Source of the DNA: Chitinophagaceae bacterium | GTDB lineage: Bacteria; Bacteroidota; Bacteroidia; Chitinophagales; Chitinophagaceae | Reading direction: 5' to 3' | Length of the DNA: 64,000 nt | Assembly (NCBI GenBank): GCA_019638595.1 | Contig: JAHBTJ010000006.1 | Coordinates: 124,001 to 188,000, forward strand | Part shown: piece by piece, positions 33,961 through 53,540 of the stretch | How the letters are laid out: the number at the start of each line of letters is the position of its first letter | Position numbering within the stretch: the first letter of the stretch is position 1 | Made by a program: the position numbers and the translations under genes | Notes under the pieces: generated by a model | Told to the model about the DNA's origin: nothing | Seen by the model: the letters and a program-made list of their open reading frames with translations, nothing else | Databases searched by the model: none

Positions 33961-33972
33961 AACTTGCACTGT

Positions 33973-34836
33973 ATGACGGATGATACAATTGTAAAATTGA
34001 TCGAATGCCCGCGGGATGCCATGCAGGGCTGGCCACGTTTTATCCCTACTGAACAAAAAGTACAGTACCTGAACGCGCTGCTGACCGTTGGCTTTGATAC
34101 GCTGGATTTCGGCAGCTTCGTTTCACCCAAAGCCATTCCGCAAATGGCGGATACGGCTGCCGTTATACCTCAACTGGATCTTTCAAAAACAAGTACCAGG
34201 CTGCTGGCTATTGTTGCCAATGTAAGAGGTGCGGAGCAAGCTGTACAATACGACGAGATATCTTATCTGGGTTTCCCGTTTTCGGTATCTCCTGTTTTTC
34301 AGCAGCGCAATACCAACAGCACAATAGAAGAATCGTTAGCGCGCGTGGAAGCAATCCAGCAACTTTGTATTCATAAGAACAAACAACTGGTTATTTATAT
34401 TTCCATGGCATTCGGTAATCCATACGGCGATGCGTATAATGAGGAGATCGTTTTTGACTGGATAAATAAAATGCAGGCGCTGGGCATTACTATTGTGTCG
34501 CTGGCAGATACGGTAGGCGTGGCTACCCCCCAACAGGTATTGACTATGACGGAGTATGTGGTACAACATTTCCCCGGTATTGAAACTGGCGTTCACCTTC
34601 ATTCAACTCCTTTTAACAGGGAAGCTAAAATGGAAGCCGCTCTTCAGGCAGGTTGCAGAAGATTTGACGGGGCGTTGAACGGCATAGGTGGGTGTCCTAT
34701 GGCCAACGATGAGCTGGTTGGCAATATGGATACCGTTGAAATGATCCGCTATTTTGATAAGAAAAAACTCACAACAGGTATTCAGGAAGCAGCCCTGGAA
34801 AACTGTGTTGATATTGCTCATTCAATTTTTATTTAA
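33973..34836 (+). CDS. Hydroxymethylglutaryl-CoA lyase-like protein
   Basis: A 287-residue TIM-barrel protein of the DRE-TIM metallolyase group. VKLIECPRDAMQGWPRFIPTE replaces the usual 'EVSPRDGLQ' element, TGVHLHSTPFNRE carries the metal-binding histidines, and ALNGIGGCPMANDELVGNMDT carries the active-site Cys of the GGCP motif. HMG-CoA lyase splits HMG-CoA to acetoacetate and acetyl-CoA in leucine and ketone metabolism. The Cys-Pro in ECPRD in place of the common Ser-Pro makes the exact substrate uncertain. ATG 33973 is used (a TTG lies 9 bases upstream). It ends one base before the GSCFA gene starts. Confidence 0.85.
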   Translation: MTDDTIVKLIECPRDAMQGWPRFIPTEQKVQYLNALLTVGFDTLDFGSFVSPKAIPQMADTAAVIPQLDLSKTSTRLLAIVANVRGAEQAVQYDEISYLGFPFSVSPVFQQRNTNSTIEESLARVEAIQQLCIHKNKQLVIYISMAFGNPYGDAYNEEIVFDWINKMQALGITIVSLADTVGVATPQQVLTMTEYVVQHFPGIETGVHLHSTPFNREAKMEAALQAGCRRFDGALNGIGGCPMANDELVGNMDTVEMIRYFDKKKLTTGIQEAALENCVDIAHSIFI

Positions 34837-34837
34837 A

Positions 34838-35839
34838 ATGGATTTCAGACTGCCATTTAAAGTAGCTCCTTTCAGCAAAACCATATCGCACAAACATTCT
34901 ATATTCTTATCCGGCTCCTGTTTTACAGAACACATGAGCCATTACCTGGCAGAAGCAAAATTTTCTGTGCTGGAAAATCCGCATGGTATTTTATTTAACC
35001 CGCACAGCATTACCTCTTCATTGCTCGCTTACATTGAAAATAAAACCTATACCCGGGAAGACCTGTTTCACTACAACGAAAGCTGGCATAGCTGGGAGCA
35101 TCACAGCCGTTTTTCTCATCCTGTTGCGGAAGAAGCTTTGCATACGATCAACCAGTCGCAACGTGCAGCCCATCATTTTTTGCAGAAAGCCGACTGGCTG
35201 ATCATAACGACTGGTTCGGCATGGGTATATGAGCTTAAAAAGGATGACCCTAACGGAGCAGAACATACGATCGTTGCCAACTGCCATAAAGTACCTGCCG
35301 ACCGGTTTCGCAAGCGTTTGATGAGTACAGAGGAAGTATTATCAGGACTGGGCAATATGCTGTACCGTCTTTTTCTTTTTAACCCTGCTATCAAGGTCAT
35401 ATTCACGATCAGCCCCGTACGGCATTTGCGGGATGGTTTTGTGGAGAACAATAAAAGCAAAGCCATACTGATACAGGCGGTACATCACCTGGTAGAAAAG
35501 TTTGAGCAGCTTTTTTATTTTCCTGCTTACGAGCTGGTGATAGATGATCTGCGCGATTACAGGTTTTACGCGGAAGACATGGTGCATCCTAATTACCTCG
35601 CTACAGGTTATGTATGGGAGCAGTTCCGTTCCGCGTGTATAGACCCTTCATCGCTGCCATTGATGCGGGAAATGGAAAAGATCAACCTGGCATTAAAACA
35701 TCGTCCTTTCAATCCCTCCTCGCAGGCACACCAAAAGTTTATACAGGCGAATCTTAAAAAAGTAAAAGAGCTGCAGGCAGAGTACCCGTATCTTGATTTT
35801 ACAAAAGAGAGAATGTATTTTGAAAAGGGAGGTTATTAG
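34838..35839 (+). CDS. GSCFA-domain protein
   Basis: A 333-residue cytosolic protein named for the motif GSCFTEH at residues ~25-31 (FLSGSCFTEHMSHYLAEAKF). Other conserved pieces are NPHGILFNP, LIITTGSAWVY and FTISPVRHLRDG. GSCFA members have an SGNH-hydrolase-like arrangement and are common in Bacteroidota, but no substrate is established. ATG 34838 gives MDFRLPFKV; the longer ORF overlaps the previous gene by more than 80 bases and is rejected. Only one base separates it from the HMG-CoA-lyase-like gene, so the two are surely co-transcribed. Confidence 0.9.
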   Translation: MDFRLPFKVAPFSKTISHKHSIFLSGSCFTEHMSHYLAEAKFSVLENPHGILFNPHSITSSLLAYIENKTYTREDLFHYNESWHSWEHHSRFSHPVAEEALHTINQSQRAAHHFLQKADWLIITTGSAWVYELKKDDPNGAEHTIVANCHKVPADRFRKRLMSTEEVLSGLGNMLYRLFLFNPAIKVIFTISPVRHLRDGFVENNKSKAILIQAVHHLVEKFEQLFYFPAYELVIDDLRDYRFYAEDMVHPNYLATGYVWEQFRSACIDPSSLPLMREMEKINLALKHRPFNPSSQAHQKFIQANLKKVKELQAEYPYLDFTKERMYFEKGGY

Positions 35840-35953: not shown

Positions 35954-38917
35954 TTATCTTCTATCCTGTTCTTCTCTTTTCTTAATGCTTTCAACTGCTG
36001 CGATTGCTTCATTTAAAAATATTGGTGGTATGTCTTTCAGCTTCATCAGCTTTTCATCATCATCGCTGCTGATATATCCAATCCACTTATTGGGCGCTTT
36101 GGCTTTGTTTACAAAATACAGCCTGCCCAGCTTTTCATCTCCGCCCCATCCATAGCCGGCGCCTACGCCTTCTACCTCCAATACGGCTTCAATCTTTTTT
36201 TCGAAATACAACAGGTTGAATGATTCCAGGTAACCGCCATCGCCTGTTGGTCCTTTATGCCAGCCATATTTTTCCAATACGCCCCGGATAGAGCCTGTGG
36301 CCATATTCGTTCCTTCATATGTATGAATAATGGATCCCGACATATCAAGGCCTGACAGGTCCGGTATCTTTCGATCCAGTTGTGCAAATACGGTTTCAAT
36401 CGCCCTGTCAAAAAATACCTGCTTCCATTGTTGCAGCGCATCCGCGCTCAGTTGTGAGGGATGCACCATGCCGGTCACCGCACTTTCTTCTATTTCATAT
36501 TCATCTTCGGTTGCAGTTAAAAGACCGGTATCATCGCTTACAATAAACGTATCCTGCAGCAGCCCGTCATTGGTATAGGTGCCCCAAAGCAGTTTGGTTG
36601 CATACATAAACATCACCGGGTTCTCCAGGAAAAACTGCTGCCATTGATCTTTTGTCCACCGGCGTTGTATAATAAGATAGTACTCCATCCGCGGTGATTG
36701 CGATTTTACTACATCTCTTACTTCTTTTGCTATATCCTTATATTCATCTTTCAGCTCTTTACCGGCGGCAGCCGGCAGCGATTTCAGCTTTTTATCATCC
36801 TCGTTGAAATAGGCAATTTTGAAATTACTGTCAATGAATGCCCGGTACGGCGCTCCATTTATTTCGAAGTGCTTAAACAATCCCTCAAAACCAAAGTCGG
36901 GAACAATACGGTCGCCCAATTCGTGTATGCTGATGCCCAGCTCTTCCGCAGCCGTTTCGAGCGCCTGCAGTGCAGCCGCGCCTACGTTGGCTTTTTTGGT
37001 ACGGTATTTACGGCTGTACCACTCTACCCATCGCAACGCTTTATCACTGCCCTGTAATGCCAGCGCTCCCACGCCATACTCTGCCATTTTGTAACGGTTC
37101 TCCTCCATCCAGCCATTAATGGTGGTCCGGATCTTATCAACCACCGCATCGTCACCCAGTAAGCCGGCAATTGCCATCAGGTATTTATGCTCGGGCTTAG
37201 CTCCCTTATTTTTATACAATTGAACCAGGTGCAGGGCAAACGGAGCAGCAGCTTCCTTATCCAGCAACTGAAGAACAAAACGGGCTTCTATATCACTTTG
37301 CATGGTTTTCACCCGGCTCATCCTGTACAATAAAAACCGGGTTACCCTTCCCGGTACCTCCCTGCCATTTTGATATCGCAAGGCAGGGAGCTCCTCTTCA
37401 TGCAGCCAGGCTTCTACCGGCTTGTCCAGCTTTCCCCTGCCGGCGGCAGACGCTACCAGGGTTTCAACAAAATCTTCGTCAGCCGATGCAGGCAAACTTT
37501 CAACCACAGACTGCAGCAATACATCCCGTGCATTGTCGTTTGTTTCTGTATTCAGCATTTGCATAATAGCCGCCGCAGTTTTTTCTCCCGGGAAATAACC
37601 AAGGATCAGTGCTGCCGTCTGCCTTGTTTCAGCATTTTTATGATTTAACAGTTGAATGGCTTTATCTTCCGCATCCGGATCGCCCTCTGCGAGCATTGCT
37701 GCCACTTTATTACGAAGTGGTTTTGATTTGTGAGACGTTAGTTCCCACGCAGCATCCATGTGTTGTTTTGCTGTTGCATACTGCTTCAGCAGGTCCAGCA
37801 CGCGCGTATAGTATTCTATGCCGCCGGTTTTGGAAGCAAGTGCGGCCCGGAGCGCAGCAACGGTATGACTGCTTTGATGTCGGCCTATAACTTCAAGGGT
37901 CCCTATTGTTACAAATGCTTTTCCCGATAAAACTTCTCCAAAATAGCCTTCAGCTTTCGTGCGATCTTGTTCATACAGGATGAGCCAGGCGACCGAACTA
38001 AGCGACATATAACTGGCCGGCCATGTATCGTCGTTAGTGCTGAATGAACCCTCCCAGGGGTCCGGCTCCAGCGTATAAAAGTGTTGCAGGTACTCATATG
38101 CCATAGAGCAGGCCAGGGCGGAAAACCGCTTTTTATCTGCCAGGTACAGCCTTATGGCAATGGAAAAATCCGGCGGCAGGTTCTCCTTCTTTCTTATAGA
38201 AGTTTCTAAAACGCCTGTTATAAACCGGATAGCATCATCATCGTTGAGCAGTGCAGGCAGCTCCTTTTTTAACAGTCCATCGGTTTGCCGGGCGCCCCAC
38301 AACAGGTATTTATTGGCTTCTGCAGGATGGTATTTTTTTAAGAGGCCAAATAAGGTGTTGCTCCAGTAGCGGTGATGTTGATTACTGATATGATAAAGTC
38401 TGCCCAGGTGGGTTGCAGGTATTTTTTGTATTGTAGCCGAAAAATATTCCAGCAATTGAGTTTTTGATTTTGAAATGATACTGCCTTCCGCAAATGCATT
38501 ATCGTACTGGTATATGAGGCTCATTAGTACCTCATCATCGGATATGCCGCTTTGTTTTATTTGTGCAACCAGGTATGTAAGATGTTCCTCCGAAGGATGG
38601 CTTAAGAAATACCAGAATAAATGGGAATAATATTGCCCCGACAAATAGGGATAAAAGTCCGGGTGATTCACCACATTCAGGATCAATTGGTCGCCCTGAT
38701 CCGGGTTCAGTGGGTTTTTCAATAGCTTCAATAATCCCGTTAAAGAATATACTGAAAAATCCTGGATCGTATTGCTGAGCGTGCTTGTTGCTCCCGTCAG
38801 GTAATCAATTACAATATTATGATTGGTTAGCTGGGAGGGATTGTAGTTGTTGCCAGGAAAATTTTTCAGGGGATCGTCTCCTATAACGTCCAAAATTTCT
38901 TGTTTAGAAAACAGCAT
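35954..38917 (-). CDS. HEAT-repeat protein with C-terminal DUF4132 domain
   Basis: A 987-residue cytosolic protein, last gene of the six-gene MoxR/VWA operon. Residues ~100-700 are helical repeats (for example AIQLLNHKNAETRQTAALILGYFPGEKTAAAIM) forming an alpha-solenoid. From ~residue 740 onward the sequence (YYLIIQRRWTKDQWQQFFLENP, then FMYATKLLWGTYTND, GLDMSGSIIHTYEG, YFEKKIEAVLEVEGVGAG) fits DUF4132, known from E. coli YehI/MolR-type proteins. It is shorter than YehI. DUF4132 has no proven function; a scaffold or substrate-recognition role for the ATPase-VWA pair is inference. It starts 72 bases after the VWA gene. Confidence 0.82.
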   Translation of the reverse strand: MLFSKQEILDVIGDDPLKNFPGNNYNPSQLTNHNIVIDYLTGATSTLSNTIQDFSVYSLTGLLKLLKNPLNPDQGDQLILNVVNHPDFYPYLSGQYYSHLFWYFLSHPSEEHLTYLVAQIKQSGISDDEVLMSLIYQYDNAFAEGSIISKSKTQLLEYFSATIQKIPATHLGRLYHISNQHHRYWSNTLFGLLKKYHPAEANKYLLWGARQTDGLLKKELPALLNDDDAIRFITGVLETSIRKKENLPPDFSIAIRLYLADKKRFSALACSMAYEYLQHFYTLEPDPWEGSFSTNDDTWPASYMSLSSVAWLILYEQDRTKAEGYFGEVLSGKAFVTIGTLEVIGRHQSSHTVAALRAALASKTGGIEYYTRVLDLLKQYATAKQHMDAAWELTSHKSKPLRNKVAAMLAEGDPDAEDKAIQLLNHKNAETRQTAALILGYFPGEKTAAAIMQMLNTETNDNARDVLLQSVVESLPASADEDFVETLVASAAGRGKLDKPVEAWLHEEELPALRYQNGREVPGRVTRFLLYRMSRVKTMQSDIEARFVLQLLDKEAAAPFALHLVQLYKNKGAKPEHKYLMAIAGLLGDDAVVDKIRTTINGWMEENRYKMAEYGVGALALQGSDKALRWVEWYSRKYRTKKANVGAAALQALETAAEELGISIHELGDRIVPDFGFEGLFKHFEINGAPYRAFIDSNFKIAYFNEDDKKLKSLPAAAGKELKDEYKDIAKEVRDVVKSQSPRMEYYLIIQRRWTKDQWQQFFLENPVMFMYATKLLWGTYTNDGLLQDTFIVSDDTGLLTATEDEYEIEESAVTGMVHPSQLSADALQQWKQVFFDRAIETVFAQLDRKIPDLSGLDMSGSIIHTYEGTNMATGSIRGVLEKYGWHKGPTGDGGYLESFNLLYFEKKIEAVLEVEGVGAGYGWGGDEKLGRLYFVNKAKAPNKWIGYISSDDDEKLMKLKDIPPIFLNEAIAAVESIKKREEQDRR

Positions 38918-38989
38918 GATCGGTTATTTTTATTTCTTCACCTCGCACACAGGCAGCAGTGTGAGAGATCTTGTTACTTTTTTGCTTTA

Positions 38990-40129
38990 TCATTTTTTCA
39001 ATACCATATCTTCCTTAGCAGCCCACATGCCTATATCCTGTTTGCCAAGTGCCGCTGCCATCAGGTCGGGGAACTTATCGGGTGTACAGGCAAATACAGG
39101 GATACCCAGGTTCGATAAAAACTGTGCATTGCCATGATCGTAAGCAGGCGCTCCTTCGTCATTCAGCGCCAGCAACACAACCAACTGAACACCTGCGGCG
39201 GCCAATTCTGTTGCACGTTTACGCATACCCTCCACGCTGCCGCCTTCATATAAATCGGTTATCAATACCAACACTGTATCCGTTGGACGGGTAATGATCT
39301 GTTGGCAATACGTTAATGCCGCATGTATATCTGTTCCGCCTCCCAACTGTACACCAAATAACAATTCAACAGGGTCTGTCAGCTCTTCTGTTAAATCTGC
39401 CACGGCAGTATCAAATACGACCATTTTTGTTTTAATGGCAGGAATAGACGCCATCACCGAGCCAAAAATGCCGGAGTACACAACAGAAGTTCCCATAGAC
39501 CCGCTCTGGTCCAAACATAAAACAACATCTTTTAACGAGCTTCTTTTCCGGCCATACCCGATGCGTGTTTCAGGAATGATGGTTTTATATGCAGGCTGGT
39601 AATGCTTAAGATTCTTGAGAATGGTAGCATGCCAGTTAATTTCATTGTGCCGTGGACGGCGGTTACGGGTGCTTTTGTTCAGGCTTCCGGTAATTGCCTG
39701 TTGTGTTGGCTGCATCAGCTTCCGCATCAGCTCATCTACTACCTTCCGCACCACCTGCCGCGCCGTATCTTTTGTTTTGTCGGGAATTACGTGGCTGAGC
39801 GTCATTAAAGTAGCTACGAGATGTACATCTGCTTCTACATTTTGCAGCATCTCTTTCTCAAGTAACATTTGCGTAAGGTTCAACCTGGTTAATGCGTCCT
39901 TTTGCATAACCTGCACAACCGTGTTGGGAAAAAAGCTCCGTATATCGCCTAACCACCTGCTTACATTGGGCGAGGATGCGCCCAGCCCGCCTTTTCGATC
40001 GCTGTCATACAGCGCGTCCAGCGTGTTGCTTATCTGCAGATCAGTTCCGTTAAGGCCGTATCCCGTACCGTCATTGGCATCACTGCCCAATATCAAACGC
40101 CACTTACGTATATCTTTTTCGTTCGTCAT
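38990..40129 (-). CDS. VWA-domain protein (YehP-like, MoxR partner)
   Basis: A 379-residue cytosolic protein with a von Willebrand A domain in its C-terminal half. The metal site is complete: DQSGSM at residues 207-212, Thr266 in GGGTDIHAA and Asp292 in LITDLYEGG. The N-terminal ~190 residues are helical and basic (RRPRHNEINWHATILKNLKHYQP), the arrangement of CoxE/YehP-type VWA proteins that pair with MoxR ATPases. Such pairs are thought to act as metal-insertion or complex-remodelling chaperones. No signal peptide or membrane helix. It follows the DUF5682 gene by 28 bases. Its length matches E. coli YehP as I recall it. Confidence 0.9.
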   Translation of the reverse strand: MTNEKDIRKWRLILGSDANDGTGYGLNGTDLQISNTLDALYDSDRKGGLGASSPNVSRWLGDIRSFFPNTVVQVMQKDALTRLNLTQMLLEKEMLQNVEADVHLVATLMTLSHVIPDKTKDTARQVVRKVVDELMRKLMQPTQQAITGSLNKSTRNRRPRHNEINWHATILKNLKHYQPAYKTIIPETRIGYGRKRSSLKDVVLCLDQSGSMGTSVVYSGIFGSVMASIPAIKTKMVVFDTAVADLTEELTDPVELLFGVQLGGGTDIHAALTYCQQIITRPTDTVLVLITDLYEGGSVEGMRKRATELAAAGVQLVVLLALNDEGAPAYDHGNAQFLSNLGIPVFACTPDKFPDLMAAALGKQDIGMWAAKEDMVLKK

Positions 40130-40157
40130 CTTTAAAGCGCATTATTGTTTTTAGATG

Positions 40158-42539
40158 CTAGATGTTCGCTCTCCCATATCCAAACAGCTCCATTATTACC
40201 GGAATGCTTTGTGCAGCTCTCTTTTCATCAAATGCGGTGGTTTCCTTCCTGCTCACCAATACGCCGCCTCCCTTTGCTTTTTCACCGATCTTTCGCCGCT
40301 CTGCCGCTGTAAAATTTGAAAAGGTCCGGCGCAGCAAAGGCAATACATGCATGAAATTTTCATCGTCCAAATGCTGCACCCAATTATTGATCACGGCCCA
40401 CAGGTCGTTATCCACCAATAGTAAAGTACCGCTCCCTTTTAAAAAGCCTTCCAGCCAGGAAGCGGCAACCGCGGGGCTTACCGCCGGTGACATAGCGAAA
40501 TAAAAGGCACGCAGCAGCGCATCGCCCTCTAATATTTTATAGTCGCTCAGCAAGCGGGTAGCATATCCCGCAAGTACCGGCGCCGCCTGTGCATTTCCCG
40601 ATATGGCATGTAATGTTTGCTGCCATTCAGCAAGTATATCCTGTATTTGCAGCACATTTACCGCATCATTCATTTTGTAAAACAATTCCAGCAGCTGTGC
40701 CGCGGCATCTTCATTTACGGACGTACATGCCGCCGGTAAGCTCACGCAGATCCTGCTGATCATGCTTTCCAGTATTCCTGCTACCAGTGCGGCATCGGTT
40801 TTGCGCACATTACCATAACGGCTAACCGAAACCAGGCTGGGAATTACTTCCATTAATTGTATTACATCGCCTGTGGCAGCGGAAAGATTATTGACCTGTT
40901 GTATCAATACATCCACTGCCCGGGGTAATTTGGCCGACAGGGTTTGCTCCAGCAATTCACATACATGCCTCAGGCCGGTGGCATTACCTGCCTGGTCAAT
41001 AATAAACTTCGAAGCCGCTTCTTCCACTGTATTTCCCCAATTGCCTTTGTCAATGATATCAATAGAAAATTCAGGGTTCCATTGCAGGCGCCACAGCTCT
41101 TTAAAAGTGCCTTTGCCTCCAATATCCTGTTTGTTCCCCCATTGTATCTGAAGCAACTGCAGGCGATGCAGCAACACGCTTCGTTGCAGATCGGTGTCTT
41201 TTCTCAGATCCAATGTATAGTCTTTCCAGTCGGCAGAGGCAGGCAAGCGCAGTTTTTTCTGCAGCTTGTCAATATCCAGTTGCAGCGGCGGGCGGGGAAT
41301 ATCAGCAGGCACTTCCCCGATGGCATTGCTTACGATCAACCGGTCGTGCACCAGGCTCATCAGGATATTTTCTCCATTGCATAATACGCTCAAAACAGCT
41401 TCATTCAGCTCTTCCAGGCCTGCTTTGGGCAAAGCCCGGAGTGCCGCCAGCGATTCAGCCAGCCTCACCGCTTCCACCACATGTGCTACGGAGGTATCCA
41501 TATTATTTTCCCTGAACAGTCGGGCAACCTTTGCCATCCATCTTGTACCGTCATCTTCGGGATATTTCCATATATGACGGTACCAGCCCGGTGATGCAAT
41601 GCCGGCACCGTAGCCGCTGTAAAAGCTTAGGCGTCTATACGTCCACGGTATCCAGGTACATTCCACCTTTACTTTGGGTAAGCCTTTCAGCAGATCATTA
41701 TCTTCCTTTGCTTTTGGCATATCCGCCAGTGCAGGTGCATGCCACGCACCGCAAACCACTGCAATGTTCCGGAACATTTCCTTCTCTGCCTGGCGAATGG
41801 TCTTTCGCATATGCGCTTCCCGCAACCGTTCCATACGGTCGTCTTTTCGGGGAAAAGCTTCCCGCAATGTTTTCATTGATTCCATCACTGCTTCAAATAC
41901 AGCTTCATCATTCATCCGGTGCTCAAACATATGTTCCCACCATTTCTCACCATCAGCATAACCCGCTGCCTTTGCCAGGTGGCTAATCGGGTCAGTATAT
42001 AAACTTACTTCCGCATCCTCCTCAATTGCCGCATCTCCCGCATCATTATTATGTAACCACCGCCGGGAATGCTTCCCCAACTGCATGGGCGACGCTCCGT
42101 TCGACTGGATATCGCTATTCGGCGATCTTCCGTTATTTAATATCTCTTTAGCGCCCGTATGATCATCTGCCCCTGCTGCTTTTGCTGCAGCCTCTTCCGC
42201 TTCTTTCCGTTTTTCTTCCTCAATGGCAAACTGGTGACATGCGGGAAGATCCATAAACCTGACAGGAATTTTATTTTTACGGGCATATAATATGGCCTGC
42301 CACTCCGGCGAAAATTCCGCGAAAGGGTAGAAAGATGAGTGTTTTGGATTATCAGGCTGATAACATAAGATCGCCACCGGGGGCTTTAACGCTTTGTGAT
42401 TCGCCCATTGCAAAATCTCATCTGCCTCCGGCGGACCTTCCACCAGCACCATATCAGGCCTGGTTTGTTCAAGGAATGCTTTCACGTTTTTCGCAGAGCC
42501 CGGCCCGTGATGCCGTATACCTAAAATGTTAACAGGCAT
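40158..42539 (-). CDS. DUF5682 protein with TraB/TIKI-like hydrolase motifs (YehM-like)
   Basis: A 793-residue cytosolic protein. The N-terminal ~270 residues contain ILGIRHHGPGSA (6-16), VLVEGPPEADE (31-41), REAHMRKTIR (240-249) and VVCGAWHAPAL (261-271). The order G-x-x-H, E-G, R-x-x-H/M, G-A-x-H is that of the TraB/PrgY/TIKI/EreA/ChaN superfamily, whose members are metal-dependent hydrolases or proteases. The remaining ~500 residues are helical and unrecognised. A Ser/Asn/Gly-rich stretch (130-166) interrupts the N-terminal domain. The family assignment to DUF5682 is from length, context and these motifs; enzymatic activity is inference. Third from the 3' end of the operon. Confidence 0.82.
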   Translation of the reverse strand: MPVNILGIRHHGPGSAKNVKAFLEQTRPDMVLVEGPPEADEILQWANHKALKPPVAILCYQPDNPKHSSFYPFAEFSPEWQAILYARKNKIPVRFMDLPACHQFAIEEEKRKEAEEAAAKAAGADDHTGAKEILNNGRSPNSDIQSNGASPMQLGKHSRRWLHNNDAGDAAIEEDAEVSLYTDPISHLAKAAGYADGEKWWEHMFEHRMNDEAVFEAVMESMKTLREAFPRKDDRMERLREAHMRKTIRQAEKEMFRNIAVVCGAWHAPALADMPKAKEDNDLLKGLPKVKVECTWIPWTYRRLSFYSGYGAGIASPGWYRHIWKYPEDDGTRWMAKVARLFRENNMDTSVAHVVEAVRLAESLAALRALPKAGLEELNEAVLSVLCNGENILMSLVHDRLIVSNAIGEVPADIPRPPLQLDIDKLQKKLRLPASADWKDYTLDLRKDTDLQRSVLLHRLQLLQIQWGNKQDIGGKGTFKELWRLQWNPEFSIDIIDKGNWGNTVEEAASKFIIDQAGNATGLRHVCELLEQTLSAKLPRAVDVLIQQVNNLSAATGDVIQLMEVIPSLVSVSRYGNVRKTDAALVAGILESMISRICVSLPAACTSVNEDAAAQLLELFYKMNDAVNVLQIQDILAEWQQTLHAISGNAQAAPVLAGYATRLLSDYKILEGDALLRAFYFAMSPAVSPAVAASWLEGFLKGSGTLLLVDNDLWAVINNWVQHLDDENFMHVLPLLRRTFSNFTAAERRKIGEKAKGGGVLVSRKETTAFDEKRAAQSIPVIMELFGYGRANI

Positions 42540-42592
42540 GGGTAATTAATTTAATCGGTAGCAATTGAAAGGCGGCATATACATACTTTTTG

Positions 42593-43672
42593 TTAATCTA
42601 AATCCCTGCATGCCCTGTATATATCTTTCCATTCTTCCCGGGGTTTTACCACGGTTTCGAGGTACTCTTTCCATACAATCTTATCCTGCACCGGGTCTTT
42701 TACTACCGCGCCTAAAATGCCGGCAGCAAGATCATTGGCTTTCAATTGCCCATCGCCGAAATATGCTGCCATTGCCATTCCATTGTTCACAACAGAAATC
42801 GCTTCGGCCGTGCTGAGGGTGCCGCTGGGTGATTTTATTTTTGTTTTCCCGTCCAGCGATGCGCCGTTGCGCAGCTCCCGGAAAATGGTAACAATGCGTT
42901 TGATCTCCTGTAATGCCGGCGGTTCGGCAGGCAGCTCCATTACTTTTTCAAAACTCTCTACCCTGCGCCGGACAATGTCTATCTCTTCTTCCATAGAATC
43001 AGGTACCGGGAGTATCACGGTATTAAACCTCCTTTTTAATGCACTCGATAGTTCATTCACCCCTTTATCCCTGTTATTGGCAGTGGCAATCACGTTAAAG
43101 CCCCTTACGGCCTGCACTTCCGTATTCAGCTCGGGTACCGGCAATGTTTTCTCTGAAAGAATAGTGATCAGCGTATCCTGCACATCGGCGCCGATACGCG
43201 TAAGCTCTTCAATACGGGCAATCTTACCATCCTTCATGGCACGCATTACGGGTGTTTCCACCAGCGCTTTTTCCGAAGGACCTTCGGCTAGCAGCCGGGC
43301 ATAATTCCATCCGTAACGAATGGCTTCTTCACCCGTACCCGCCGTGCCCTGTACGATCATGGTGGAATCGCCGCTGATGGCAGCAGCCAGGTGCTCGCTC
43401 ACCCAGCTCTTGGCGGTGCCCGGTAATCCATACAGCAATAATGCGCGATCGGTAGTGAGCGTTGCCACTGCTATTTCCATCAATCGTTTGTTGCCAATAT
43501 ATTTGGGCGATACCTCAAATCCATTGTTCAATTTTCCACCGGTTAAATACATTACTACCGATTGAGGCGACAGCTTCCAGTTAGCAGGTTTTTTGTTGCT
43601 GTCATTTTTTTGCAGCTCTTCCAGTTCCTGTGCAAATAGCTGCTCGGCATGTTGGCGTAATACTGTTGACAT
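42593..43672 (-). CDS. MoxR-type AAA+ ATPase (YehL-like)
   Basis: A 359-residue ATPase. Walker A is GLPGTAKS at residues 82-89. The Walker B region reads KIARIEELTR, with Glu-Glu in place of the usual Asp-Glu, then sensor 1 IATANNRDKG and the arginine-finger region ALKRRFN. These and the length fit the YehL subgroup of the MoxR clade. MoxR ATPases form hexamers and work with VWA proteins to mature or remodel target complexes. It begins 10 bases after the DUF5691 gene, pointing to tight coupling. The target is unknown; no methanol-dehydrogenase or CO-dehydrogenase genes lie nearby. Confidence 0.92.
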   Translation of the reverse strand: MSTVLRQHAEQLFAQELEELQKNDSNKKPANWKLSPQSVVMYLTGGKLNNGFEVSPKYIGNKRLMEIAVATLTTDRALLLYGLPGTAKSWVSEHLAAAISGDSTMIVQGTAGTGEEAIRYGWNYARLLAEGPSEKALVETPVMRAMKDGKIARIEELTRIGADVQDTLITILSEKTLPVPELNTEVQAVRGFNVIATANNRDKGVNELSSALKRRFNTVILPVPDSMEEEIDIVRRRVESFEKVMELPAEPPALQEIKRIVTIFRELRNGASLDGKTKIKSPSGTLSTAEAISVVNNGMAMAAYFGDGQLKANDLAAGILGAVVKDPVQDKIVWKEYLETVVKPREEWKDIYRACRDLD

Positions 43673-43682
43673 AGATATCTGT

Positions 43683-45164
43683 TTACTGATTGAAATATTG
43701 TATTGTCTGATCTTTTAGCTGAATAAGCTTGGTTATATAGGCGCTCATGCTGTTCCAGTGATCCTTGTGGTATTCCTGTTCAGGACTTACCTGGTGTAGT
43801 ATGGTTGTAGCCTGTACGGGCAACAGGTGAATGATGCTGCTGTAAAAGGAACGGTTGTACTGGTAAGTGTTTTTTGCAGTATGGTTAAAAATTTCTTTTG
43901 TGAGCGCTGCCGTCCATTCATTTGAAAACCGGAGGGCATACTGCACAATGCTATCCGGAAATTGCTGCATGTATTGCAGGCAACCGGCTTCCTGCTCCGC
44001 GGGAGGAAGCAGCGGTATAATATCTATATAAAATACCTTGCTATGCTGTGCAAACGCTTTTGCCCATTCAACATCTTTAAACCGTACGATGGCATTTACC
44101 AGTGCCGGTATTAATTTTTTACCGGTTTCATGTGCCTGGAAGTATTCAATTACCTGTTGTTTGCTTACCTGCAGATGGATTTCCCAAAAAGCAGGGGGTG
44201 TATGCTCTGCCAGTTGAAACAAAATAAACGCATCATCTGTAAGCTCTTTATTATTGCTGAGCTTGTCAATGCCTGTTTTGTAAATACTTTCATCCGGTAT
44301 TGTTAAGTGAAATTCCGGTTGTATGGTATTGCTGAGCCCCAGTAATTTTTTTTGCTGCTTAAGGCTAACCGATTGCTGCAATGCCTGTTGGTACTGCTGT
44401 ACAACAGCAGATCCCGGTATTGATTTTAAAAGGGATAAAGCTGTTTCCTTTACTTTTTTACTCTTATCGTTTACCAATCCTTCCAGGAAAGCGATATCAG
44501 CATCGTTGACCGTTTCATATAACAGCTCCAGGAATGACTGGCGGGTGGCAGCGTCCTCCTGCTGCCAGGTTTGCTGCAGCCATTGCAGACCCAACGCGGG
44601 ATCGTTCCTGCGGACCTGTTGCAATGCCATCTTACGCTGGTCGGTCGTGCCGGTTTGCCAAAGCTCTTCTTCGGTGCCGGTATTACCAAAGTTCCAGTGC
44701 GGGTTGAACACGGCCAGCCAGGCGCCACGTTTGCCCGTGCAGCAACTGATAAGGGGTTGTAATTTTTTGTGCTGTTCGCCTACGGTTAATAACAGCGGTA
44801 CAAACGGCGGCGCAACTATTTGTTGATACTTATTGCAATGGGTAAGCCAAAGCTGAAGCAAAGGAATATTTTCTTCACTTACAATATCCTGCAGTACCTG
44901 CATGCTTTTCCTGCTGCAGTATTTTTTTTCTTCAGATGGCGCCGGCGCCATGCTGATTTCCCTGTTGAGCGCCGCCGCGCCACTTTGACGATAATTGAAT
45001 GCTAATGACGCTGCCTGCAGGAATTTCTCTTCTTTATCGAGCAAGCCATTCTCCTGTATAACATTAAAGGCAGGCAATAATACATCGTTCACTTCCCGCT
45101 CGCTGATGTTTTTTTTATCCGTTCCCAGTATAGCCGCATGAATAACAGTATTCCAGAGTTCCAT
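43683..45164 (-). CDS. DUF5691-family alpha-helical protein
   Basis: A 493-residue cytosolic protein. It begins MELWNTVIHAAILGTDKK, the typical opening of DUF5691, and is almost entirely alpha-helical with HEAT-like segments (LQWLQQTWQQEDAATRQSFLEL; KKVKETALSLLKSIPGSAVV). A high Gln content and no catalytic motif argue for a scaffold. It lies between the SWIM and MoxR genes (51 and 10 base gaps), so it is part of the same machine. I know of no function for this family. In the E. coli yeh set I do not recall a separate homologue. Confidence 0.8.
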   Translation of the reverse strand: MELWNTVIHAAILGTDKKNISEREVNDVLLPAFNVIQENGLLDKEEKFLQAASLAFNYRQSGAAALNREISMAPAPSEEKKYCSRKSMQVLQDIVSEENIPLLQLWLTHCNKYQQIVAPPFVPLLLTVGEQHKKLQPLISCCTGKRGAWLAVFNPHWNFGNTGTEEELWQTGTTDQRKMALQQVRRNDPALGLQWLQQTWQQEDAATRQSFLELLYETVNDADIAFLEGLVNDKSKKVKETALSLLKSIPGSAVVQQYQQALQQSVSLKQQKKLLGLSNTIQPEFHLTIPDESIYKTGIDKLSNNKELTDDAFILFQLAEHTPPAFWEIHLQVSKQQVIEYFQAHETGKKLIPALVNAIVRFKDVEWAKAFAQHSKVFYIDIIPLLPPAEQEAGCLQYMQQFPDSIVQYALRFSNEWTAALTKEIFNHTAKNTYQYNRSFYSSIIHLLPVQATTILHQVSPEQEYHKDHWNSMSAYITKLIQLKDQTIQYFNQ

Positions 45165-45215
45165 TCGTATCGTTTCTGCTATTGAATCTTTAATAAGTAT
45201 GACTAATTTGCCGGG

Positions 45216-46655
45216 TTACAACAAATGATATTCCTGCCGGTCCCATAACCCTACGGGCTCGTAGCTTTGTTCACGACCAACAACCACAACGTCTACAGCA
45301 TTACCTCCCGAAATAGAAAGCAGTTTCCAGATGCGGCGCTGTTCATTGCGGACAGGCATCATATTTTTTTCCATATCCTGAAGCCACCAGCTTCCATTGT
45401 ATAGAACAGGCGTTACCTGCTGTATAATGTATGGACGTTCGCTGCGAAAGGGAAGCTTACTATTGTAGTCTGTTTCATGCTGCAATACCTGCTGCCAATT
45501 GCTGAACCCGGTAAATTCAGTAGCAGCATTGCTGTTGATCTGCCGTTTGATAATGGCCCGCATCGGCAGTACCGATGGATAAAAAACCAGCTCAGCCTGT
45601 ATGAACATGCCCGGCATAAGCGTAAGCTGCGCACCCTGCCCGCGGACAATGAATTGCAAAACCAGCGCATAGCTGTTGCTGTTAGTGCCATACAACCAGT
45701 TGCGTTCGGTAGTTACATTGTCGTCTTCCGATATTTGTTTAGCTAAAACCAGCCATGTATCTACCATGCCGGTTTGCTCTTTCAACGCTTCCTGGTTTTG
45801 TGTAAAGCCTATCCAGGTACGCACGTCCTGCTGTAAAGGTTCGCTGAAGTGCTGAATATGCTTAAAAGATTCAGCCACCATATACAAACGCAGCAACTGA
45901 TCCATGAATACAGATTGCCAGCCTTCTGTATAGAAATTGGTATCCCCAAGGTTACGGATCATACCGGCCAGCCCGGGGGCCTGCGCATCAATCATACGCC
46001 GGGACATATTCTGAAAGAAAGTAGGTTCCTTATCGGGTATGCCGGTAAGCCCGTTCCGTATAATATCTTTTATCCAGGTTTTCAATTCGGCAATGCCATC
46101 CTCTACTTTAGACTGGCGTTGCTGCTGACGTTTGGCTTGGGCCGATTCATCAACGGGTTTGTCTTTTTTCTCTGCCTGCTTTTCCTGTTTTTCTGATCGT
46201 TTGGCCAACCATTCAGCTACCCATGCCGGCGCTTCAGCCCCGGTAAAATTATTCTTCTGGCGGGCATATAGCAACAACAAACCCAACCCATGCTTACACG
46301 GAAATTTACGGCTGGGGCAACTACATTTGAAGGCAATATTAGTAGTATCTATTTGTGTTTGATATGGCTTACTGCCGCTTCCCTGGCATTCGCCCCAAAT
46401 AGCCACATCGTTGTAAGAGCGGGTAACCCATTTGGCAGGAGCAGCAAGTCCCAGCCCGGCTTTTTGAGAAGACGCATCGGGAGCAAGTGAAAGTATTTGT
46501 TCTTCGGTTAGATCCAATGGATAAAATTTACCGGAAGATAGCGAAAAAGGAGAAATGGAATGAAAAAGTTGAATACAGGCTATACTTTGGAGTAGTGATT
46601 GTATTGGAAAAGTAAATGGTATCTCTCCGGTTGAAGATATCTGTCTTGGAGGCAT
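45216..46655 (-). CDS. SWIM zinc-finger protein (YehQ-like)
   Basis: A 479-residue protein and first gene of the MoxR/VWA operon. The SWIM motif is C111-x-C113...C120-x-H122 (FKCSCPSRKFPCKHGLGLLLL). SWIM fingers bind zinc and often nucleic acid or protein. The rest is helical with a basic stretch (residues ~150-185: AKRSEKQEKQAEKKDKPVDE). The first ~46 residues look unlike coding sequence of this family; homologues begin near DLTEEQILSLAPD, so a TTG start at 46517 is possible. It is divergent from the TlpA-like gene across about 80 bases. Confidence 0.85.
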   Translation of the reverse strand: MPPRQISSTGEIPFTFPIQSLLQSIACIQLFHSISPFSLSSGKFYPLDLTEEQILSLAPDASSQKAGLGLAAPAKWVTRSYNDVAIWGECQGSGSKPYQTQIDTTNIAFKCSCPSRKFPCKHGLGLLLLYARQKNNFTGAEAPAWVAEWLAKRSEKQEKQAEKKDKPVDESAQAKRQQQRQSKVEDGIAELKTWIKDIIRNGLTGIPDKEPTFFQNMSRRMIDAQAPGLAGMIRNLGDTNFYTEGWQSVFMDQLLRLYMVAESFKHIQHFSEPLQQDVRTWIGFTQNQEALKEQTGMVDTWLVLAKQISEDDNVTTERNWLYGTNSNSYALVLQFIVRGQGAQLTLMPGMFIQAELVFYPSVLPMRAIIKRQINSNAATEFTGFSNWQQVLQHETDYNSKLPFRSERPYIIQQVTPVLYNGSWWLQDMEKNMMPVRNEQRRIWKLLSISGGNAVDVVVVGREQSYEPVGLWDRQEYHLL

Positions 46656-46736
46656 GGTGTCCTACAAAAGATTAAATATTTGTATTTTTAAGTAATGTTT
46701 GTTAAGGGTTTAATACAGCCTAAAGATAATTGCATC

Positions 46737-47651
46737 ATGAACATAGCATCACTCATTTCTTTCTTGTTTGTTCTTTTTACTATGAATGGTTTTGCTCAGT
46801 CTGGTGATACGATATTTGATACTATTCCCGGGAAATACAAACCTCAATTTAAAGAGGATCTTGAAAAGTATAGTGCCTATGCCAATCCCTCAATGGAAAG
46901 ATTATCAAAAACGGGGGCATTATTGGATGCTGTTGAGCGAGGATATTTAAAGGGCTTGAATAAAGATTCCTTGCTCTCTGCTTATGAGTTACAAAAAGAC
47001 ACAACTTATATCAAAAAAATAGAGTTTATCAGGCAACTCCCCGACAGCTATGCATCATTGTGGGTTTTCAACCAATGGGTTCTCACCTCCCCAAGATTCT
47101 CCCTGGATAGCCTGGTTAATATTTTTTCTTTTTTTAACCCGGAGCTCAAGGAAACGCCTCTGGGCAAAGAGGTAATAGCGTCTATTAAAAGGAAAAAAAT
47201 ATTACAGCTAAACAATGAGATGCCGCTTTTTACATTTAAAACAGAGCAAGACAAATATATTGATCTTGCTTCCTTTCGTAACAAAAAATATGTGTTACTT
47301 TGTTTTTGGGCTTCCTGGTGCGGGCCATGTATAAGGAATATTCCATTATTGAAAAAAATAGATTCAACTTACGGAAAGAAAGAACTGCAAACCATTTCAA
47401 TTTCAATTGATAAAAATAAAAAAGACTGGTTATCTGCATTGAAAAAATACAATATGCCCTGGCTGCAGGCCCTGGATATCCGCGTCAATACAGAAAAAGG
47501 CAATATCCAAACCCTGTATGAAATATATTATATACCACAATATTTTCTTATTAATAAAGAAGGGGAATTAATCTACCAGGATTTTCTTGATAAAGACGAG
47601 GAGGATCATGTAAAATTGCTAAATCTCTTAACACAAACTTTTCAAAAATAG
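46737..47651 (+). CDS. TlpA/thioredoxin-like exported protein
   Basis: A 304-residue protein with a signal peptide (residues ~1-20, ending GFAQ), a helical N-terminal ~150-residue segment, and a C-terminal AhpC/TSA-like thioredoxin domain. The redox centre is WASWCGPCIRNIP (CxxC), and YYIPQYFLINKEGELI carries the cis-proline element. Such Bacteroidota proteins act as periplasmic disulfide reductases, often in cytochrome c maturation or oxidative protection. ATG 46737 is chosen over 46695 since it gives Met before the signal peptide. It is divergent from the MoxR/VWA operon; a functional link is not evident. Confidence 0.88.
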   Translation: MNIASLISFLFVLFTMNGFAQSGDTIFDTIPGKYKPQFKEDLEKYSAYANPSMERLSKTGALLDAVERGYLKGLNKDSLLSAYELQKDTTYIKKIEFIRQLPDSYASLWVFNQWVLTSPRFSLDSLVNIFSFFNPELKETPLGKEVIASIKRKKILQLNNEMPLFTFKTEQDKYIDLASFRNKKYVLLCFWASWCGPCIRNIPLLKKIDSTYGKKELQTISISIDKNKKDWLSALKKYNMPWLQALDIRVNTEKGNIQTLYEIYYIPQYFLINKEGELIYQDFLDKDEEDHVKLLNLLTQTFQK

Positions 47652-48408: not shown

Positions 48409-49503
48409 TTAGTCAGGTCTAAATCGTTCCAATGATTGCCAATATTTGTCTTTGTAAATATCGTATTCTATTTCAAATCTGTTGTCGTTGTTTTGTTGCG
48501 TTTTGAAAAATACTTTTGAAGGTTTGCGGAAGTCTTTGCAGGCAAAATAAATATCTCGTTCGCTGTTTGCGGTTTGTCTGCCAATATATAAATAACCGTC
48601 TTTGTCTGAAAGTTGTTGTAATATGCTTTCTTCAATTTCGTTTAAGCTTTGGTAGTCATTTTCGTTGGGCATTCCGTTATTGTTAGTTCCGTCATACTTA
48701 AAAGTAATTACAGCAATCCAGGGATGTGAAGCTTTGCTGTCCCACTTAAGAAGTTGAGTATTTACAACTGCTATTAATTTGTTTCCACTTTCCAATTCAG
48801 CTTCCAAAATTGAGTGTTCGTCATCTTTTGTATCATAACAAACACCGTCATATTTTTCAATAAATTCTTTTTGTCGCCAGGTCAAAAAGTCTTTGAGTTT
48901 TGCAATTGGAACAAGTTCTTTTTCTGCTTCGTGTCTGCCGGTTATTTTCAGGTTGTCTATATTTTTTACAAAGTCAAGTTCGCCTAAATAATTGTCTAAG
49001 AAAATGTAAATTCCATTTCCAATTTGCTGTTTGTTTTCTTCTGTCAGCTCGTTATGAATTACAGTAATGTCAATTTCATCCGGATAGTCAGAGTGGTCGT
49101 TGGAATAGAAGAATAAATTATCGGTGTCAAATTTATATCCAGCCATATTGATGGCTACGTTTTGAATGTCCAACGCAGGTTTGAGGGCTGTAAATTTCCA
49201 GCCGTTGATTTTCGGCGCCTGCTCTACAAGTTCTTCTATGAAAACAATGTTTTTCGTGTTGCCGTCTGCTGTTAATACTAATTCAACAGTGTTGTCATCA
49301 TACATACCTGTCAGATAATAATACCCGTCTTTTAGTTCAGCGAGTTTTGGCGAAAGTTTGTCAAAGAAGCCTTTTTCAATGTTTCTGCGGGATTTGACCA
49401 CATTAAAAAATGTCTTTTCGTTGTTTTGAAACCAATTCCAAAAGTCGCTGTAACTTTTGATTGATTCATCTTTCCTGCCAAAAATATTTTTTAGAAAACT
49501 CAT
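48409..49503 (-). CDS. DUF695-domain protein
   Basis: A 364-residue soluble protein. The N-terminal part (SYSDFWNWFQNNEKTFFNVVK, LSPKLAELKDGYYYLTGMY) and a C-terminal ~130-residue region (ASHPWIAVITFKYDGTNNNGMP, then SILQQLSDKDGYLYIGRQTANSERDIYFACKDFRKP) match the DUF695-type fold as I remember it. DUF695 proteins are small cytosolic proteins of unknown function. The gene is AT-rich compared with its distant neighbours, uses the minus strand like the other three in the block, and is followed by palindrome B. Confidence 0.75.
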   Translation of the reverse strand: MSFLKNIFGRKDESIKSYSDFWNWFQNNEKTFFNVVKSRRNIEKGFFDKLSPKLAELKDGYYYLTGMYDDNTVELVLTADGNTKNIVFIEELVEQAPKINGWKFTALKPALDIQNVAINMAGYKFDTDNLFFYSNDHSDYPDEIDITVIHNELTEENKQQIGNGIYIFLDNYLGELDFVKNIDNLKITGRHEAEKELVPIAKLKDFLTWRQKEFIEKYDGVCYDTKDDEHSILEAELESGNKLIAVVNTQLLKWDSKASHPWIAVITFKYDGTNNNGMPNENDYQSLNEIEESILQQLSDKDGYLYIGRQTANSERDIYFACKDFRKPSKVFFKTQQNNDNRFEIEYDIYKDKYWQSLERFRPD

Positions 49504-49529
49504 TGGTCTGTCAAGTTAAATTTTAATCC

Positions 49530-49600
49530 GGTGCGGTCTGTAAGCCATGCCTGGAGCGAACAGGTATTTGTGATGGCAGGGCATTCTGTATTGCATCACG
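49530..49600 (-). repeat. Palindrome-bearing junction C of the cassette-like block
   Basis: The gap between the DUF695 and DUF4288-like genes holds ATGCCTG / CAGGGCAT (49547-49584) and GTGATG (49570-49575) with CATCAC (49594-49599). It is a palindrome-rich junction like A, B and D, but without a GCTAAC core that I can see. Confidence 0.35.
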
Positions 49601-49636
49601 CTGATACCGAAGTTGATAAAAAAATAATTATCTTGT

Positions 49637-50347: not shown

Positions 50348-50389
50348 AGAATTAATTGTCTGTCGTGAAAAATAATACTATGTTCTAAC

Positions 50390-52645: not shown

Positions 52646-52659
52646 CCCGGTAACGTTTA

Positions 52660-53481: not shown

Positions 53482-53540
53482 TGCATTACTTTTTAAATAC
53501 CGCAGATGTACAGACACTTCCATACACCTGCGGCTGGTGG

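What the first reader, a model, noticed from the sequence alone, without database searches (positions are those of the whole stretch)
35954..46655. Six-gene MoxR-VWA-DUF5682-SWIM operon, a Bacteroidota version of the E. coli yeh set
Six minus-strand genes with gaps of 51, 10, 53, 28 and 72 bases encode SWIM, DUF5691, MoxR-type ATPase, DUF5682, VWA and HEAT/DUF4132 proteins. From memory, E. coli carries yehL (MoxR), yehM (DUF5682), yehP (VWA) and yehQ (SWIM) next to yehI (DUF4132), with similar lengths. The set is conserved across distant phyla yet has no proven target. The ATPase-VWA pair suggests a remodelling or metal-insertion chaperone; the DUF5682 protein may be its client or effector enzyme. 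The separate DUF5691 gene may be specific to some lineages.
Basis: partly seen in the sequence, partly recalled or inferred. Interest (0 to 1): 0.75.

Follow-up and report, generated by a model that had tools for sequence, protein, structure and literature searches.

The report
ATPase-driven hydrolase operon of unknown target
A five-gene set shared by many bacterial phyla, with a divergent relative in E. coli, appears to pair an ATP-driven remodelling machine with a previously unrecognised enzyme of the Tiki/TraB peptidase-like family, which makes a long-anonymous gene group testable.

Summary
In detail: six minus-strand genes with the stated gaps and families. The interpretation needs changing. 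The conserved unit is five genes, SWIM-DUF5691-MoxR-DUF5682-VWA, in that order in 55 of 64 loci with enough flank, in seven or more phyla. DUF4132 is an optional sixth gene (10 of 80 loci). E. coli yehI-L-M-P-Q is a diverged relative: no DUF5691, SWIM at the other end and barely similar. So this is the widespread form, not a Bacteroidota version of yeh. In 198 genomes of the window's phylum all 7 with DUF5682 have DUF5691 (one weakly), against 1 weak hit in 191 without. In 18 genomes with mostly scattered loci each holds one DUF5682, one VWA and (17 of 18) one MoxR. New lead: the first 300 residues of DUF5682 resemble PrgY-type TraB proteins of the Tiki hydrolase superfamily (best E 2.7e-6, score 47.6; 298 decoys reach 30.2), with motif residues aligned and invariant, also in E. 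coli YehM. Best reading: a NorQD-like MoxR-VWA motor that activates, or works with, a Tiki-type hydrolase. Fold and substrate are untested; structure prediction was off.

The parts
45216..46655 (-). SWIM zinc-finger protein, first gene; true start probably near 46511 or a little upstream
   Evidence: Pfam SWIM 7.8e-5; a CxC...CKH finger of the type CSCPSRKFPCKH in 60 of 62 family ORFs; profile match starts at 46511
43683..45164 (-). DUF5691 protein, probably a HEAT-like helical solenoid
   Evidence: Pfam DUF5691 3.7e-93, HEAT_2 0.0059 under cut-off; hhalign to the DUF4132/HEAT protein family E 6e-4, probability 28.7
42593..43672 (-). MoxR-type AAA+ ATPase (YehL family)
   Evidence: Pfam AAA_5 3.9e-37; Walker A pattern and an E-E Walker B in 73 of 74 family ORFs each; PDB midasin and NorQ
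40158..42539 (-). DUF5682 protein (YehM family); residues 1-310 predicted Tiki/TraB-type hydrolase domain, rest of unknown fold
   Evidence: Pfam DUF5682 3.4e-274; PrgY-type TraB profile and sequence comparisons; weak Pfam hits to TraB in 2 of 49 and ChaN/Tiki in 1 of 49 members
38990..40129 (-). VWA protein of the CoxE type (YehP family) with MIDAS residues
   Evidence: Pfam VWA_CoxE 2.9e-46; DxSxSM in 71 of 72, GGT[DN] in 69 of 72 and the later D motif in 69 of 72 family ORFs
35954..38917 (-). HEAT-repeat plus DUF4132 protein, optional sixth gene
   Evidence: Pfam DUF4132 1.6e-32, HEAT_2 7.8e-8; family found in 10 of 80 related loci

Best explanation
The operon encodes a self-contained machine. 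A MoxR AAA+ ring and its CoxE-like VWA partner work as an ATP-driven remodelling pair, as NorQ and NorD do. Their working partner is DUF5682, whose first ~300 residues form a Tiki/TraB-superfamily hydrolase domain with an intact active site. The motor either puts that enzyme into its active (possibly metal-loaded) state or hands it a substrate. DUF5691 (HEAT-like solenoid) and the SWIM zinc-finger protein hold the complex together or recognise the target; DUF4132/HEAT is an add-on found in some lineages. Shown: gene content, conserved order, co-retention, intact motifs. Supported by sequence but not by structure: the Tiki/TraB relationship. Inferred: physical complex, direction of action, hydrolase activity, substrate, cytoplasmic location.
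For: Order SWIM-DUF5691-MoxR-DUF5682-VWA in 55 of 64 eligible loci, and on a Deinococcus plasmid with one small extra ORF inside; annotated partial sets on Rhizobium and Methylosinus plasmids. DUF5691 in 7 of 7 DUF5682-positive (one below cut-off) and 1 of 191 DUF5682-negative genomes of the window's phylum (Fisher 3.8e-12, or 9.0e-11 counting only hits over cut-off). In 18 genomes chosen mostly because the locus looked incomplete: one DUF5682 in 18 of 18, one VWA in 18 of 18, one MoxR in 17 of 18 (one of them partial), often on different contigs. DUF5682 N-domain against PrgY-type TraB: profile-profile E 2.9e-4, 2.0e-4 and 6.2e-6 in the two directions without insert columns, best single sequence E 2.7e-6 over 220 columns. 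H10, E34, D97, R240-E241 and G264-x-x-H267 align with residues invariant in the 9 PrgY-type sequences and are 23 of 23 in a set of which 22 were not chosen by motif, E. coli included. MoxR-VWA principle: NorQD (PMC13036017 abstract, PMC9976466 passages).
Against: No structure could be predicted. PDB profile searches with the DUF5682 family found no Tiki-fold chain. GumN-type TraB and EreA single sequences, of the same superfamily, did not rise above decoys (0 of 16; as profiles E 0.023 and 0.066), and only 4 of 9 distinct PrgY-type sequences did. In the Pfam scan of 49 members, TraB was hit by 2, but a glycosyltransferase family by 3, so that scan is weak by itself. Shuffling the PrgY profile in 10-column blocks gave a maximum (38.2) above the real score (36.7), so much of the signal is local motifs. 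No data show that MoxR or VWA touch DUF5682. One Tiki enzyme is reported as metal-independent (PMC6254334 passages), so the fold does not imply metal loading.
Confidence: 0.5

Rival explanations
1. The MoxR-VWA pair matures an enzyme outside the operon (a respiratory, iron-sulfur or molybdenum enzyme), and DUF5682, DUF5691, SWIM and DUF4132 are adaptors for that client.
For: Known MoxR-VWA pairs (NorQD, CbbQO, RavA-ViaA) act on separate enzymes (passages). A SUF iron-sulfur assembly group lies just upstream in four Chitinophaga loci (L014, L015, L016, L018), and SufC/D/S-type genes lie near the Flectobacillus locus L054; the window has an FeS_assembly_P gene at 51054-51554. Genes by E. coli yehI carry the old name molR, molybdate utilisation (PMC4245954 passages citing Lee 1990; that paper not seen; the link to yeh is recalled).
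Against: The SUF neighbourhood is in 5 of 80 loci, four of them one close clade; the other printed clusters, 29 in all, are scattered, genus-level or antisense ORFs. The operon is also on plasmids without an obvious client. The putative catalytic residues of DUF5682 are fully kept, which an adaptor would not need.
Confidence: 0.25
2. It is a conflict (anti-phage or anti-plasmid) system like the MoxR-VWA ternary systems described by others.
For: MoxR and VWA with a third part resemble the ternary systems of PMC7159879 (passages). Patchy presence: 7 of 198 genomes of the window's phylum and 10 of 200 of the Pseudomonadota draw; 26 records of the plasmid collection, some of them chromosome-sized.
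Against: Only weak, partial PADLOC matches: OloA and HEAT-ARM to the HEAT regions, IetA and REase_II to the ATPase. No defence genes among the recurrent neighbour clusters printed, as far as their example sequences could be recognised. MoxR is 68-91% identical to the window copy in 15 relatives from several phyla and the putative catalytic residues are invariant, opposite to fast-diversifying effectors. yehM is in 5,284 of 5,426 E. coli genomes. Bacteroidota copies group together in a quick tree (one change, support 78).
Confidence: 0.1
3. It is a nucleic-acid or DNA-damage response module: SWIM, HEAT and DUF4132/WGR proteins bind nucleic acid and DUF5682 is a regulator.
For: An operon with a DUF4132 gene is strongly upregulated on DdrO depletion in Deinococcus radiodurans (PMC8533742 passage). 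SWIM fingers are often nucleic-acid linked (recalled).
Against: That Deinococcus gene was not shown to lie in this operon; DUF4132 was found in only 10 of 80 loci of this type.
Confidence: 0.1

Closest known systems
E. coli yehI-yehK-yehL-yehM-yehP-yehQ (K-12, 2200279-2210944)
   Same: MoxR, DUF5682, VWA in the same internal order, with DUF4132 and a SWIM protein next to them; the same putative active-site residues in YehM
   Different: No DUF5691; SWIM protein at the other end and not alignable beyond the finger; DUF4132 upstream instead of downstream; DUF5682 only 26% identical
NorQ/NorD and CoxD/CoxE type MoxR-VWA metal-insertion pairs
   Same: MoxR ATPase plus VWA_CoxE protein with MIDAS; NorQ is a PDB relative of the ATPase
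   Different: No NOR or CODH gene recognised among the recurrent neighbours printed; Walker B carries E-E; two extra conserved partners
PrgY-type TraB proteins / Tiki hydrolase superfamily
   Same: Aligned GxxH, E, D, R-[DE], GAxH motifs and profile similarity of DUF5682 residues 4-300
   Different: About 480 further residues of unknown fold instead of the C-terminal part of the TraB proteins; tied to an ATPase operon
MoxR-vWA ternary conflict systems (PMC7159879)
   Same: MoxR plus VWA plus a third component
   Different: The paper's main text has no mention of YehL, SWIM or EreA; no variable effectors seen here; match to bpMoxR only under cut-off

Membership tests
MoxR AAA+ ATPases | AAA_5/MoxR domain with Walker A, Walker B, sensor 1 and arginine finger | tested here: met
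   Pfam AAA_5 3.9e-37; Walker A and E-E Walker B in 73 of 74 ORFs each, sensor 1 pattern in 70 of 74, ALKRRF in 65 of 74. Walker B is E-E, not D-E
VWA (CoxE-like) MoxR partners | VWA domain with DxSxS, T, D MIDAS residues | tested here: met
   Pfam VWA_CoxE 2.9e-46; 71, 69 and 69 of 72 ORFs for the three motifs (a narrower first pattern matched only 49 of 72); in 16 aligned sequences DxSxS and the later D are invariant, T nearly so
MoxR-VWA metal-insertion systems (NorQD, CoxDE) | Demonstrated metal or cofactor insertion into a client | not testable with these tools
   Needs biochemistry; a SUF iron-sulfur group is next to the operon in one Chitinophaga clade and near it in Flectobacillus only
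Tiki/TraB/EreA/ChaN hydrolase superfamily (DUF5682 residues 1-310) | Sequence-profile relationship to a member family | tested here: met
   PrgY-type TraB: with the limits given under evidence against; 2 of 49 members hit PF01963 (best 0.0027), 1 of 49 PF04187 (0.021), among 39 families hit in all. Not met for GumN-type and EreA singles
Tiki/TraB/EreA/ChaN hydrolase superfamily (DUF5682 residues 1-310) | Conserved catalytic His and Glu motifs | tested here: met
   H10, E34, H267 aligned to the TraB His, Glu, His and 23 of 23; G7 is 19 of 23 and H11 21 of 23 there; the second Glu of the 2His/2Glu set described for another member has no assigned equivalent
Tiki/TraB/EreA/ChaN hydrolase superfamily (DUF5682 residues 1-310) | Parallel beta-sheet core fold | not testable with these tools
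E. coli yeh set | Same five/six families in one operon | tested here: not met
   MoxR and VWA align over nearly all their length and DUF5682 by profile over nearly all; DUF4132 aligns over 342 residues; SWIM not significant; DUF5691 not found in E. coli (control row)
MoxR-vWA ternary conflict systems | Third component VMAP/iSTAND/FtsH and variable effectors | tested here: not met
   No such domain at E up to 0.1 in the six proteins; bpMoxR and nSTAND P-loop matches of the ATPase are under cut-off

The most novel reading that the evidence does not exclude
A new kind of AAA+ hydrolase machine: a MoxR ring with a VWA adaptor that drives a Tiki-type peptidase (DUF5682), found across bacteria and, in a diverged form, in nearly all E. 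coli, as a protein-quality or peptide-processing device unlike Clp, Lon or FtsH.
Probability: 0.2. Interest if true: 0.85.

Novelty: new variant of a known kind. Interest (0 to 1): 0.6.

Why it matters
yehM, the DUF5682 gene, is matched in 5,284 of 5,426 complete E. coli genomes, yet the listings showed no functional study of the set. Reading DUF5682 as a Tiki/TraB-type hydrolase names exact residues to mutate in a laboratory K-12 strain, and would give a MoxR-VWA pair an enzyme partner encoded in its own operon.

Tried and rejected
Structure prediction and fold search: off. PDB sequence search with DUF5682 profiles: only chance-level matches. TraB search in 34 genomes that carry DUF5682: none found, and without a positive control this shows nothing. 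Viral contigs: no DUF5682 relative among 78 pattern matches and no TraB among 23; one unannotated 'Bacteriophage sp.' record of 14 kb holds a DUF5682 gene, possibly bacterial DNA. Neighbour analysis for defence or client genes: 29 clusters in 3 to 9 loci, on a crude ORF choice; most are scattered, genus-level or antisense to the operon, the exception being a SUF group. Global-mode hhalign was a wrong setting and was replaced by local mode. The iron-sulfur/NO-type genes at 51-54 kb of the window were considered as clients and set aside: unrelated genes lie between, and only the FeS_assembly_P type was seen again near relatives (L015, L016, L018).

Limits: loci were found with two peptide patterns, one containing GIRHH, so the 68 of 68 for H10/H11 is partly by selection; L041 was dropped there for lacking HH, as were rows under 700 residues and rows 72% or more identical to a kept one. 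One search repeats the count on 23 sequences, 22 of which came from searches by family profile, protein or place. The 18 genomes were chosen by hand, mostly for an incomplete-looking locus; in one (G436) MoxR, DUF5682 and VWA are side by side, and in some drafts contig ends may explain the split. In one search, 16 of 80 loci lacked flank and were left out of the order count; two of these also show all five in order. The DUF4132 count rests on a profile built from the window gene and may miss distant copies. The 16 loci of alignments A4-A6 were picked by hand from those with the genes. Decoys were 298 ORFs of 230-450 residues from the fetched loci (I asked for up to 420); some may not be real genes.
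Full report
What is there. The window holds six minus-strand ORFs in the stated places, with gaps of 51, 10, 53, 28 and 72 bases. Pfam assigns SWIM, DUF5691, AAA_5 (MoxR type), DUF5682, VWA_CoxE and HEAT plus DUF4132, all over the curated cut-offs. NCBIfam gives no match over its cut-offs; the ATPase is weakly like MadB and GvpN ATPases. PADLOC matches are weak and partial: OloA and HEAT-ARM to the HEAT regions, IetA and REase_II to the ATPase. PHROGs has families of unknown function matching DUF4132, VWA and DUF5682; the phage collection holds one unannotated record with a DUF5682 gene.

How conserved it is. With profiles built from the window genes, 64 of the 80 had enough flank to judge; 55 of 64 show SWIM-DUF5691-MoxR-DUF5682-VWA in that order on one strand, counting two (L025, L054) in which DUF4132 lies between DUF5682 and VWA (layout). 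They include Bacteroidota, Cyanobacteria, Chloroflexi, Planctomycetes, Acidobacteria, Verrucomicrobia and Proteobacteria (titles). DUF4132 was found in 10 of 80. On plasmids the annotated neighbours are the same: SWIM, DUF5691, AAA, a small ORF, DUF5682, VWA in Deinococcus; DUF5691 to VWA, after a hypothetical protein, in Rhizobium; SWIM to DUF5682 in Methylosinus (that gene table is incomplete by design). MoxR is the most conserved part: 68-91% identity to the window protein in 15 relatives, mean column identity 82%, against 68% for VWA and 49% for SWIM, each over 16 sequences, and 44% for DUF5682 over 63. A quick tree of 85 DUF5682 sequences keeps the 41 labelled Bacteroidota rows together (one change, support 78), while Pseudomonadota and Chloroflexota need 5 and 4 changes, so descent with losses plus some transfer is likely.

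It behaves as a unit. In 198 genomes of the window's phylum (Bacteroidota, by its nearest named relatives) DUF5682 occurs in 7 and DUF5691 in 8, six of them over the cut-off: 7 of 7 DUF5682-positive genomes, one of these below the cut-off, and 1 of 191 negative ones, a partial sub-threshold hit (Fisher 3.8e-12; 9.0e-11 with hits over the cut-off only). I then took 18 genomes, most of them chosen because the DUF5682 locus looked incomplete. All 18 have exactly one DUF5682, all 18 exactly one VWA at E up to 1e-40, and 17 of 18 one MoxR, partial in one. In G037 and G218 the DUF5682, VWA, MoxR and DUF5691 genes lie on four different contigs. Fifteen of these 18 also have a DUF5691 match, one of them below the cut-off. 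Genes that are kept together after they have come apart most likely work together. The missing control is a MoxR/VWA search in DUF5682-negative genomes.

Neighbours. Clustering of 823 neighbour ORFs of the 80 loci gave 29 clusters present in 3 to 9 loci. Most are scattered kinases, transporters, genus-level synteny or ORFs antisense to the operon. One is worth noting: a SUF iron-sulfur assembly group (SufBD, class-V aminotransferase, SufE, FeS_assembly_P domains) lies just upstream, on the same strand, in four related Chitinophaga loci, and SufBD and the aminotransferase lie near the Flectobacillus locus on the other strand. Five of 80 loci is too few to call it a partner, but with the FeS_assembly_P gene of the window itself (51054-51554) it is a hint towards iron or metal.

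Relation to E. coli. yehI (DUF4132), yehL (MoxR), yehM (DUF5682), yehP (VWA) and yehQ (SWIM) are adjacent in K-12, with yehK after yehI, and have those Pfam domains. By BLAST, MoxR/YehL 39%, VWA/YehP 34%, DUF5682/YehM 26% and DUF4132/YehI 26% over 342 residues match; SWIM/YehQ is not significant (E 0.45, profile 0.16), and no yeh protein significantly matches DUF5691. In the Pseudomonadota draw, 10 of 200 genomes carry DUF5682: four only the high-scoring kind, five only a lower-scoring Yeh-like kind, and one both. All five Yeh-like-only genomes lack DUF5691; 17 of the other 20 genomes searched in the same call have it. Two of the Yeh-like stretches fetched show a yehQ homologue after VWA (L165 and, weakly, L167). 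There are therefore two forms, and the window has the common one. yehM is matched in 5,284 of 5,426 E. coli genomes, in 5,166 over at least 80% of its length.

What DUF5682 is. The family is unnamed, but its N-terminal 300 residues carry GIRHHGPGS, then VEGP, SPEW, DLP, RExxM and CGAWHxPAL. From recall this looked like the Tiki/TraB/EreA superfamily, so I tested it. A profile of 63 DUF5682 sequences against 9 PrgY-type TraB sequences gave E 2.9e-4 over 219 columns; the other operon proteins gave 0.1 or worse against the same TraB profile. A mainly GumN-type profile and an EreA profile gave only 0.023 and 0.066, though the PrgY and EreA profiles, accepted kin (passages, for Ere; TraB recalled), gave 0.021 with each other. 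With insert columns removed the two directions gave 2.0e-4 and 6.2e-6; the highest of 150 column shuffles scored 26.5 against 36.7, but the highest of 100 ten-column block shuffles scored 38.2, so local motifs carry much of the signal. Single sequences: the best PrgY-type protein scored 47.6 (E 2.7e-6), and 4 of 9 distinct PrgY-type proteins beat all 298 decoys (maximum 30.2), while 0 of 16 GumN-type or EreA proteins did. In the alignment H10, E34, D97, R240-E241, G264 and H267 fall on residues that are invariant in the TraB set. Scanned one by one against Pfam, 2 of 49 members hit TraB_PrgY_gumN (best 0.0027) and 1 of 49 the ChaN/Tiki family (0.021); 39 families were hit in all (25 shown), a glycosyltransferase family by 3 members, so this alone proves little. 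H10, E34, E79, D97, R240, E241, M244 and H267 are present in 23 of 23 sequences, 22 of which were not chosen by motif; H11 is F or L in two and G7 aligns with P in four. PDB profile searches found no Tiki-fold chain. I hold the superfamily assignment at about three in four.

How it may work. NorQD shows the principle: the VWA protein plugs the MoxR ring with a finger, its MIDAS binds the client, and ATP turnover drives a remodelling that lets metal enter (PMC13036017 abstract; PMC9976466 passages). Here the ATPase has its motifs, with an unusual E-E Walker B in 73 of 74 ORFs; its PDB relatives at E up to 1e-3 are midasin and NorQ; and the VWA protein keeps the MIDAS. The constant third partner is DUF5682, so the simplest reading is that MoxR-VWA works on or with it. 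Tiki itself is reported as metal-dependent, another member as metal-independent (PMC6254334 passages), so metal loading is one option among two; substrate delivery is the other. DUF5691 and the DUF4132 protein look HEAT-like and, with the SWIM finger, may be scaffold or target-recognition parts.

Literature. Full-text searches for DUF5682/DUF5691/DUF4132 (3 papers, all for DUF4132), the yeh gene names (6 papers listed; 40 of 667 listed) and domain combinations (20 of 212 listed; none) showed no functional study of this set in the listings; most subscription papers are not covered. Deletion of molR1, which its authors place at 47.3 min on the E. coli map and tie to the 1990 molR work, has no growth defect alone but one with lepA deleted (PMC4245954 passages). 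That molR1 is yehF or yehH, next to yehI, is my recall, not a call. An operon with a DUF4132 gene is strongly upregulated on DdrO depletion in Deinococcus radiodurans (PMC8533742 passage). Neither fixes the function of this operon.

Verdict. The new part is the predicted hydrolase identity of DUF5682 with exact residues to test. It is a new variant of a known kind, MoxR-VWA systems, with interest 0.6.

Noticed in passing
window 51054-54494, minus strand: Likely iron-sulfur/nitric-oxide repair group: FeS_assembly_P protein, a 421-aa membrane protein weakly like COX1, and two DUF2249 proteins, one with ScdA_N and Hemerythrin domains.
   Followed up: partly
L014, L015, L016, L018 upstream of the SWIM gene; L054 1-3446: SUF iron-sulfur assembly genes beside the operon in one Chitinophaga clade (same strand) and near it in Flectobacillus (opposite strand).
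   Followed up: partly
window 48409-50785, minus strand: Three small genes in a row; the two scanned carry DUF695 and DUF4288; they may be immunity-like or recently acquired.
   Followed up: no
window 46695-47651, plus strand: Redoxin/thioredoxin-fold protein divergent from the operon start.
   Followed up: no
window 33964-35839, plus strand: HMGL-like lyase overlapping a GSCFA protein, facing the 3' end of the operon.
   Followed up: no
phages collection, MT835988.1 10644-12755: A 14-kb faecal 'Bacteriophage sp.' record holds a DUF5682 gene, 28.8% identical; it may be bacterial DNA in a viral bin.
   Followed up: no
   Followed up: no
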